Assembly (NCBI GenBank): GCA_018857735.1
Contig: JABMCL010001163.1
Coordinates: forward strand, 412,501-476,500
Direction: 5' to 3'
Source of the DNA: Alviniconcha marisindica
Lineage: Eukaryota; Mollusca; Gastropoda; Provannidae
Length of the DNA: 64,000 nt
Shown: positions 1-64,000 of the stretch, one piece after another
Layout of the letters: each line of letters begins with the position of its first letter
Position numbering within the stretch: the first letter of the stretch is position 1
Notes under the pieces: generated by a model
Database searches by the model: none
What the model saw: only the letters and a program-made list of their open reading frames with translations
Told to the model about the DNA's origin: nothing
Program-made: the position numbers and the translations under genes

Positions 1-85
1 GGAGATCATTAATGCTTTCTGCCTCTGCGACTCTCAGTGCGTCACCATGGCAACCAAGCACCTAGTTCACCTTCTTCTGTCACCG
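1..85 (+). CDS. UBR4: UBR4 exon 1 (5' end outside the window)
   Basis: Encodes 28 residues containing CDSQCVTMATKHLVHLLLSP, of helical-repeat character. It ends in phase 0 at a GTATGC donor at 86. The reading frame joins exon 2 without a gap. The first base belongs to a codon split by the window edge or by an upstream intron. I cannot align it residue by residue to a known protein, so this is the least certain exon. Confidence 0.6.
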
Positions 86-3000
86 GTATGCCAGTTTGAC
101 ACAATTACTGCCAATATGAGAAAGAAAGAATTTCCTGTGGTTGCCTTTGTGTGCCTGCAGGAAGCAGTTTTGTTTTAATGTGCCAGCGCGGTTTGCCCTG
201 GGCAGCCGTGAGACACATTTCTTTTTTTAATATAAAAAAATGGTGGTAAAGTGGGTAGCAGTTTTTCTGCCCCCAAGTTATTTGCCATCAGCCAAAACAA
301 ATTGAGATGTAATTGGTACCCACCCCTTTACTGATGAAAATAAAATCCACCCGATGTTGGTCTCTTCGGCGGTCTTGAATTGAACCTGCATATTTCATTT
401 TGCCTCTGAGACAGCTTGAGCTTGTGACGTTTTTGGCCTCTGGCATTGCCATCTTCGAGGTGGTATGAATGTGGCTGTCACTCTGTCTGGTTAGGTTAAT
501 GACATTTGGGAGGAAAGAACAGGAGCCTTGTGACCCGGCAGTCTATTCTGCAGACTGGAGTTGTGTCCCTTGACTGTTGCGATTGGTGGTGTCTTTATGT
601 GCTGTGTTTGTAAATAAAGTGCTGTTGACTTCTGCATGTATGAAAATTGCCCTTGTCATTTTATGAATAGCTACTGCATTCTCCCCCCACCCCCTCCCAA
701 CTATATAATAATAATGATGTGCATTTTTGTTTTATTTTTGAAGAGCACAAACTGTATGGTGTAAAGTTTTGTTTGACAGCGTTTAAGAATGTTGTAAATG
801 TGCTGGTGTCTCAGTAGCCTTATGAAGCAAAAATTATATGGAGAGAGGGAGAGAAGAGCTGATTCATAGAGGTTAGCATTTTTACAAAGGGGTTGCCTGA
901 CACCTAATTGGAAGCAATTTTGGTCAATTAAAACTGTCTCTGGGCTGTCAACATGTCGAGTAATGGGAGAGACAGTTGTGGTAATCATGGAATATGAACC
1001 TTGCAAAAAGTTGCCAAATCAGCATCAACACTGAGCATACTAACATGAAACCCCTCAACTAATGCCACCAGAAAATATGCACATTATGTAACCTCATTTG
1101 CATATGCAGATACAAGAGTCATGTCCCTTGGAATTGTATTTATTTTGGTGATGGAAATGTGAATATTGCTGCCTTGTGTTAGAGTGGGGCAGCTTTTAGC
1201 TGTGAAAAAAATAAAAAAATATTAATCTTGTAAACACGAAGCAGTTCTTGGTAAGTTTCTAAGTAAGCTGTCCAATTTTGGGTGCTTTTGTTTAAATTGT
1301 AAAATGCATAAACCGCTTGTATGTAACAGTTGAATTGGACTGGTGAGTTTTTTTGACCTTGGTGCCTTCGGTTCGAATCCTGGTTGCATTTTCGCAACTG
1401 CGGATAAATGCTATCGGGTGTTTCTGGAAGGATAGGCTCTTAGCTTTTCCTGATGTTAAAGAAATATAGTGTGTGTGGGAGTGAATGTGTGTGTCATTGA
1501 GAAAGAAAGGGCTGTTCTAAGTTTTTGTACTGGTTGCATTTTGTGTGTCACTGGAAACAAAGACACAATGCTCTTTGCAAGAGTGACATGTAGATTTCAG
1601 ACCATTCTTGAAAAGCATATAAAGATTTTGTTGGTCAGATAGTTTACAGCCCCTTTTTACTCCCATTTCTGCCACATTCCGTAAGCTGTGTCTGGGAGGA
1701 ATCTGCCATATTATATTACATGAGCAGTGTCTATCTCCTATTTCTGCCACATTCCGTAAGCTGTGTCTGGGAATCTGCCATATTACATGAGCAGTGTCGG
1801 TCTCCCATTTCTGCCCATTCCGTAAGCTGTGTCTGGGAATCTGCCATATTACATGAGCAGTGTCGGTCTCCCATTTCTGCCACATTCCATAAGCTGTGTC
1901 TGGGAATCTGCCATATTATATTACATGAGCAGTGTCTATCTCCCATTTCTGCCACATTCCATAAGCTGTGTCTGGGAATCTGCCATATTATATTACATGA
2001 GCAGTGTCTATCTCCCATTTCTGCCACATTCCATAAGCTGTGTCTGGGAATCTGCCGTATTACATGAGCAGTGTCTACTGTGTCTGGGAATCTGCTATAT
2101 TACATGAGCAGTGTCTACTGTGTCTGGGAATCTGCCATATTACACGAGAAATGTGTACCTCCCATTTTTGCCACATTCCATAAGCTGTGTCTGGGAATCA
2201 GCCATATTACGTGAGCAGTGTCTATCCCCTATTTCTGCCACATTCCATAAGCTGTGTCTGGGAATCTGCCATATTACACGAGCAGTATCTATCTCCCATT
2301 TCTGCCACATTCTAAGCTGTGTCTGGGAATCTGCCATATTACATGAGCAGTGTCATCTCCCATTTCTGCCACATTCCATAAGCTGTGTCTGGGAATCTAC
2401 CATATTACATGAGCAGTGTCTGTGTCCCATTTCTGCCACATTCCATAAACTGTGTCTGGGAATCTGCCATATTACATGAGCAGTGTCTACTGTGTCTGGG
2501 AATCTGCCATATTACATGAGCAGTGTCTATCTCCCATTTCTGCCATATTCCCCCGTCACATACAATACAATCATACTTTATTGATCCTTAAATGTTTAAA
2601 AAGGAAATTCAGTTGTCTGCCTTTGACAAATAATAACAAGTACATAAAAATGTAATTAAATACTGTACAGTTTCACTCACTTAATTAGAACAAAAAATAG
2701 ACATGCAGCGTGTGTCTGATTATAGACATGCAGTGAGTGATTATTGCCGTGTGCCATGAGCAGTTCTAGGGGCAACAGCCATGCCATCACCTGTGCCCTG
2801 AGACCTAGAATAATGGTCCTCATTGAGTTGTGTCATTTGAACAAGGTGAAGCTAACGTCCTGTTTTGGTTGGTAGGATGTTCAAGTGAGCGGAGCAGCGT
2901 GCCATGCCATTATCCGCGCCCTGCGACCTCGTCATCGCCATCGTCGCCGACGAGTCTTCATCCCAACACCTCCTACCTGTAGCTCTCCAGGTGTGGAATA

Positions 3001-63935: not shown

Positions 63936-64000
63936 GTAAGTGGCGGAATCGTCATGCTAGTCGTCGTCATCTTAGTCATCATCATGTTAGTCGTCATGCC
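63936..64000 (+). repeat. GTCATC-type repeat in intron 55 (runs off the window)
   Basis: GTCATGCTAGTCGTCGTCAT CTTAGTCATCATCATGTTAG TCG. Short trinucleotide-based tandem repeat after the donor. Confidence 0.8.

What the first reader, a model, noticed from the sequence alone, without database searches (positions are those of the whole stretch)
1..64000. Intronic minisatellites repeatedly built from the adjacent splice junction
In about 27 of 54 introns the tandem unit, or a decayed neighbouring copy, contains the flanking splice site plus 8-95 nt of the neighbouring exon. Acceptor-type: introns 1, 3, 4, 6, 7, 13, 16, 17, 29, 31, 34, 36, 40, 42, 43, 44, 53. Donor-type: 10, 13, 14, 17, 20, 24, 27, 28, 34, 35, 36, 47, 48, 51. 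Copies always extend into the intron and never lengthen the exon. This may be a mutational process with purifying selection removing in-exon growth, or arrays starting preferentially at exon borders (for instance by template switching near splice sites or R-loops). The result is over 150 candidate decoy splice sites in one essential gene. I know of no description of such a gene-wide pattern.
Basis: partly seen in the sequence, partly recalled or inferred. Interest (0 to 1): 0.78.

Follow-up and report, generated by a model that had tools for sequence, protein, structure and literature searches.

The report
Junction-copying minisatellites, as chance predicts
Many introns of this snail-like UBR4 gene contain tandem copies of their own exon-intron border, but only about as many as randomly placed tandem duplications would give, so the borders do not look like special targets and the known 'mirage' minisatellites of lancelets are the closest precedent.

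Summary
The window lies in a UBR4 gene of a caenogastropod-like genome. I modelled 94 introns by spliced alignment to 12 UBR4 proteins (50 lie wholly in the window). At a score not reached in 370 chimeric controls, 23 of 100 window junctions (20 of 50 introns) and 38 of 188 gene-wide have intronic copies spanning the junction.

The proposed junction preference is not supported. Arrays occupy much present-day intron, so the null must count each array once. With that correction, intron-body points lie in tandem duplications at 19.9% and junctions at 20.2% (ratio 1.02, 95% interval 0.74-1.34). Matched controls give 0.73-0.93. A separate count of TRF arrays in three genes gives 31 observed against 30.8 expected. 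Two dynein heavy chain genes show the pattern at lower density; one has a nominal excess.

Best explanation: local tandem duplication with random breakpoints. Exon-internal growth is removed by selection; border-spanning copies survive because the outermost junction stays intact. Decoy splice sites are not visibly eroded. Amphioxus 'mirages' are the same kind of structure; the gene-wide count and test were not found in those passages.

The parts
1..64000 (+). Middle to 3' part of a UBR4 gene (the gene spans about -69 kb to +68 kb in window coordinates); 50 introns modelled wholly inside the window
4156..5631 (+). Intron with acceptor copies, 11 nt exon reach, 5 copies with intact AG
7305..8066 (+). 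Acceptor-side array of intron 5818-8056, unit about 76, 10 nt into the exon by TRF; not among the gapless hits
9440..10695 (+). Acceptor-type array of intron 9361-10670, unit about 60, 25 nt into the exon; 7 copies, 6 with intact AG
11687..12087 (+). Acceptor-type array of intron 10876-12079, unit 74, 8 nt into the exon; 4 copies, all with intact AG
13275..13645 (+). Donor-type array of intron 13282-14093, unit about 67, 7 nt of exon in the array; 3 copies, all with intact GT
16360..17350 (+). Intron with copies of both junctions: donor (54 nt exon reach) and acceptor (array 17035-17390, unit 182, 40 nt exon)
24896..25260 (+). Donor-type array of intron 24924-25904, unit 38, 28 nt of exon; 7 copies, all with intact GT
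25268..25926 (+). Acceptor-type array of the same intron 24924-25904, unit 50, 22 nt of exon; 11 copies, 10 with intact AG
28612..28896 (+). Intron with a donor copy, 6 nt exon reach
31332..32561 (+). Intron with a donor copy, 32 nt exon reach, only 2 nt on the intron side
34646..35685 (+). Intron with a donor copy, 22 nt exon reach
38020..38503 (+). Intron with an acceptor copy, 7 nt exon reach
39091..39761 (+). Intron with an acceptor copy, 26 nt exon reach
41584..42116 (+). Acceptor-type array of intron 41338-42107, unit 39, 9 nt of exon; 9 copies, 8 with intact AG (intron supported by 5 of 12 models only)
42367..42847 (+). Intron with a donor copy, 54 nt exon reach
42937..43187 (+). Donor-type array of intron 42990-43866, unit 65, 53 nt of exon; 2 copies, both with intact GT
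44123..44974 (+). Intron with copies of both junctions: donor (71 nt exon reach) and acceptor (TRF array 44814-45014, unit 95, 40 nt exon)
48520..49699 (+). Acceptor-side array of intron 48460-49685, unit 43, 14 nt of exon by TRF; weak in the gapless test (exon score 3); its one copy lacks AG
51536..51724 (+). Intron with an acceptor copy, 25 nt exon reach
52023..53397 (+). Acceptor-side array of intron 51848-53372, unit 55, 25 nt of exon by TRF; gapless test gives exon score 1
56097..56480 (+). Donor-type array of intron 56131-57672, unit 67, 34 nt of exon; 13 copies, all with intact GT
59587..59838 (+). Donor-side array of intron 59598-61050, unit 34, 11 nt of exon by TRF, gapless exon score 2; 2 copies, neither keeps GT
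61978..62696 (+). Intron with an acceptor copy, 5 nt exon reach

Best explanation
In this genome, short stretches of DNA (median TRF unit about 36 nt on the held contig) are tandemly duplicated and then amplified and eroded in place, with breakpoints that take no notice of exon borders. When a duplicated stretch covers a splice junction, it contains the splice site plus some exon. Such a duplication is harmless if splicing keeps using the outermost, exon-attached copy: the protein is unchanged and the extra copies lie in the intron. Duplications wholly inside an exon change the protein and are lost. The pattern is therefore random duplication seen through a selective filter, not a process aimed at splice sites. 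Shown here: array units are almost all private to their intron within the held sequence, junctions are hit at about the background rate, typical exon reach equals intron-body reach, and decoy splice sites are not visibly eroded. Inferred: slippage, unequal exchange or similar as the molecular cause, and actual use of the outermost junction in RNA.
For: (1) With each array counted once, junctions are in duplications at 38 of 188 (20.2%) against 19.9% of intron-body points, ratio 1.02 (0.74-1.34); two dynein heavy chain genes 9 of 102 against 7.5%; three genes 47 of 290, ratio 1.10 (0.79-1.40). (2) Independent TRF count with collapsed intron lengths: arrays overlapping a junction by >=4, >=8, >=15 nt: 34, 31, 21 observed of 162; 34.0, 30.8, 25.2 expected. 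(3) Reach across the junction into the exon has the same median score (16) as reach in intron bodies, Mann-Whitney P 0.73 (body points are not independent). (4) 129 of 131 UBR4 intron arrays have no match more than 3 kb away in the held sequence at E 1e-6. (5) Splice dinucleotides are intact in 117 of 130 UBR4 copies; per-base identity there is like that of its neighbours. (6) 154 of 164 copies in the three genes would shift the frame or bring a stop if used. (7) In amphioxus such copies are reported not to interfere with regular splicing by RT-PCR (passages).
Against: Compared with the intron points nearest the exons, junctions look somewhat depleted: 0.73 (0.51-1.03) in UBR4, 0.79 (0.57-1.04) over three genes (introns of 420 nt or more only). 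Long exon reach is scarcer than long reach in intron bodies (75th and 90th percentile 23.5 and 33.4 against 29 and 47), and deep exon overlap (>=15 nt) in UBR4 is 14 against 21.1, P 0.04. So mild selection against junction-spanning copies is possible. One dynein gene goes the other way: 5 against 2.7, P 0.03, and 5 against 2.4 at >=15 nt, P 0.006. No RNA was available, so use of the outermost junction is inferred from protein homology. Introns whose models were unstable were dropped, which could remove array-rich junctions.
Confidence: 0.83

Rival explanations
1. Arrays start preferentially at exon borders, for instance through R-loops or template switching at splice sites.
For: Many junctions are in arrays. 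A shuffle test without correcting for other arrays in the same intron gives 24 against 19.1 in UBR4 (P 0.12), 2 against 1.9 in one dynein gene and 5 against 1.5 in the other (P 0.005).
Against: After correction UBR4 has 24 against 26.1 and the three genes 31 against 30.8; only the second dynein gene keeps a nominal excess, 5 against 2.7, P 0.03. Ratio of junction to body 1.02 (0.74-1.34), matched controls 0.73-0.93 in UBR4.
Confidence: 0.05
2. Junction-spanning arrays are clearly deleterious because they offer decoy splice sites, and selection both removes them and destroys the copied sites.
For: Ratio 0.73 (0.51-1.03) against the nearest intron points in UBR4; fewer deep exon overlaps than expected, 14 against 21.1; acceptor copies score lower on average than authentic sites (-0.31 against 1.77 bits in UBR4); in the dynein genes 7 of 11 acceptor copies keep AG.
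Against: Overall ratio about 1; splice dinucleotides intact in 58 of 61 donor and 59 of 69 acceptor copies in UBR4; 47 of 61 donor and 33 of 69 acceptor copies there score at least as high as the authentic site by a generic matrix.
Confidence: 0.1
3. The copied junctions have a function, for example as splicing enhancers, recursive sites or regulated exon extensions.
For: Decoys are well kept; one donor array upstream of the window (intron -33069 to -31966, 48-nt unit) stays open in frame through 8 of its copies.
Against: Identity at the splice dinucleotides is close to that of neighbouring bases; arrays arise at background rate; 154 of 164 copies would break the protein if used.
Confidence: 0.04
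4. Assembly artefact, or dispersed satellite/transposon-borne repeats.
For: Tandem arrays are often misassembled in general (established knowledge).
Against: Copies within arrays differ from each other; units match the local exon, and 129 of 131 arrays have no distant match in the held sequence; three genes on different contigs show it.
Confidence: 0.03

Closest known systems
'Mirage' minisatellites of amphioxus (Adh3, globins BflGb6 and BflGb9, troponin C, PGBD5)
   Same: Tandem duplications spanning an exon-intron boundary, at 5' and 3' borders, many copies keeping AG/GT, reported not to interfere with splicing (passages read in PMC3087553, and PMC3902484)
   Different: In those passages reported gene by gene; here tens of junctions in one mollusc gene, with two further genes, and tested against a null. 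The original Adh paper was not read; it is cited in those papers
Intron gain by tandem genomic duplication (Rogers model, cited in PMC3087553; potato RdRp case PMC4974935, search listing with start of abstract only)
   Same: Tandem duplication including a splice signal or proto-splice site
   Different: There a new intron forms; here existing introns carry the copies and no new intron was shown
Human IFI6 (6-16) minisatellite with repeated splice donor sites (recalled; a search, listed three papers that were not read)
   Same: Tandem unit carrying a splice donor at an exon end
   Different: Recalled as giving alternative transcripts; use of copies is untested here

Membership tests
Mirage minisatellites | Tandem repeat unit spans an intron-exon boundary | tested here: met
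   38 of 188 UBR4 junctions and 9 of 102 dynein junctions
Mirage minisatellites | Both 5' and 3' borders can be duplicated | tested here: met
   17 donors and 21 acceptors of 94 each
Mirage minisatellites | Many but not all copies keep the AG/GT signal | tested here: met
   117 of 130 UBR4 copies, 26 of 34 dynein copies
Mirage minisatellites | Regular splicing is not disturbed | not testable with these tools
   no RNA available
Mirage minisatellites | Length instability between alleles or cells | not testable with these tools
   one assembly only
Intron gain by tandem duplication | A new intron at a position absent in relatives | not tested
   intron positions were not compared with relatives
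Dispersed satellite or transposon-borne repeat | Same unit at unrelated loci | tested here: not met
   2 of 131 arrays have a match more than 3 kb away in the held sequence; the whole genome was not searched for units

The most novel reading that the evidence does not exclude
Splice-site choice in this animal strictly favours the exon-attached (outermost) copy even when many equally strong copies, donor or acceptor, lie close by in the intron, so that junction-spanning duplication is effectively neutral and such arrays persist at the same rate as any other. That would make these genes a large natural experiment on how the spliceosome picks among identical sites.
Probability: 0.35. Interest if true: 0.55.

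Novelty: new member of a known kind. Interest (0 to 1): 0.33.

Why it matters
It shows that a striking-looking pattern follows from a simple null once length bias is removed, and gives a usable test for anyone scanning genomes for junction-linked repeats. It extends the amphioxus 'mirage' idea to a mollusc and to whole genes, and the many strong but apparently unused decoy sites offer material for studying splice-site choice.

Tried and rejected
Naive coverage profile: one-sided duplication coverage falls from about 50% in mid-intron to 18% at the junction and 1% at 60 nt into exons. I first read this as 2.8-fold depletion at junctions and rejected that reading: present-day intron bases are length-biased towards arrays, while a junction is a single landmark. 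One search corrects this. The dynein profile of the same kind goes from about 20% to 9%.

TRF shuffle without collapsing other arrays gave a slight excess, 24 against 19.1 in UBR4; replaced, but both are reported.

Frame bias of units: 8, 6, 10 of 24 junction-overlapping arrays have unit length 0, 1, 2 modulo 3, against 27, 35, 41 of 103 arrays inside introns; no clear signal, not pursued.

The last summary line for the splice dinucleotide bases (0.5 and 0.475) is wrong because of boolean addition in my script; I use for that point.

Other gastropod UBR4 genomic loci were not compared: the collections on hand hold no other animal genomes as far as their descriptions say, and I made no scan of them.

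Full report
What the window is. The window is G000:C2772:412501-476500 of an 817.6-Mb assembly in 2806 contigs. A search with stitched reading frames returned UBR4 proteins, the first three from the molluscs Elysia, Plakobranchus and Saccostrea, and the Pfam family E3_UbLigase_R4 gives 12 matches in the genome, all on this contig. tblastn with the Lottia and Plakobranchus proteins lays the gene from about -69 kb to +67 kb in window coordinates. A protein stitched from two dynein heavy chain loci of the same genome is 85% identical, over 71-72% of its length, to proteins of Littorina saxatilis and Babylonia areolata, so the animal is probably a caenogastropod; the species is not known to me.

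Gene models. I wrote a spliced protein-to-genome aligner (GT-AG introns, three phases, generic metazoan splice weights recalled, not taken from a call) and aligned 12 UBR4 proteins. An intron was kept if at least 3 models, and at least 40% of those covering it, agreed on both ends, and if no withheld base lay within it or 30 nt around: 94 introns, 50 wholly in the window. Introns with unstable ends were dropped, for instance around 86-2875, 18026-24745 and 35859-37910. As controls I modelled parts of two dynein heavy chain genes on other contigs, with 7 and 5 homologues: 25 and 26 introns with at least 4 votes.

Noticed in passing
window coordinates -33069 to -31966 (stretch upstream of the window, fetched): An 18-copy donor array with a 48-nt unit in which the frame of the exon stays open through 8 of the copies; it could in principle lengthen the protein by 16-residue repeats if decoys were used.
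   Followed up: partly
whole UBR4 span against the rest of the held contig and two dynein genes: Array density differs about twofold between genes: TRF covers 50% of the UBR4 span, 37% of the rest of the held contig, and 23% and about 27% (withheld bases left out) of the two dynein stretches. The cause is not known.
   Followed up: no
introns of UBR4 and two dynein genes, 40-150 nt from exons: Landmark coverage by duplications is somewhat higher close to exons (0.19-0.23 at 40-150 nt) than deeper in introns (0.14-0.18) over three genes (similar, where search space plays a part). Not resolved.
   Followed up: partly
dynein heavy chain locus on contig C2354 (L036-L039): This gene alone shows more junction overlap than expected (5 against 2.7 arrays, P 0.03); small numbers.
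   Followed up: partly
contig C2772, window coordinates -4999 to 0 and other stretches: Several stretches next to the window read N because they are withheld, so introns there could not be used.
   Followed up: no
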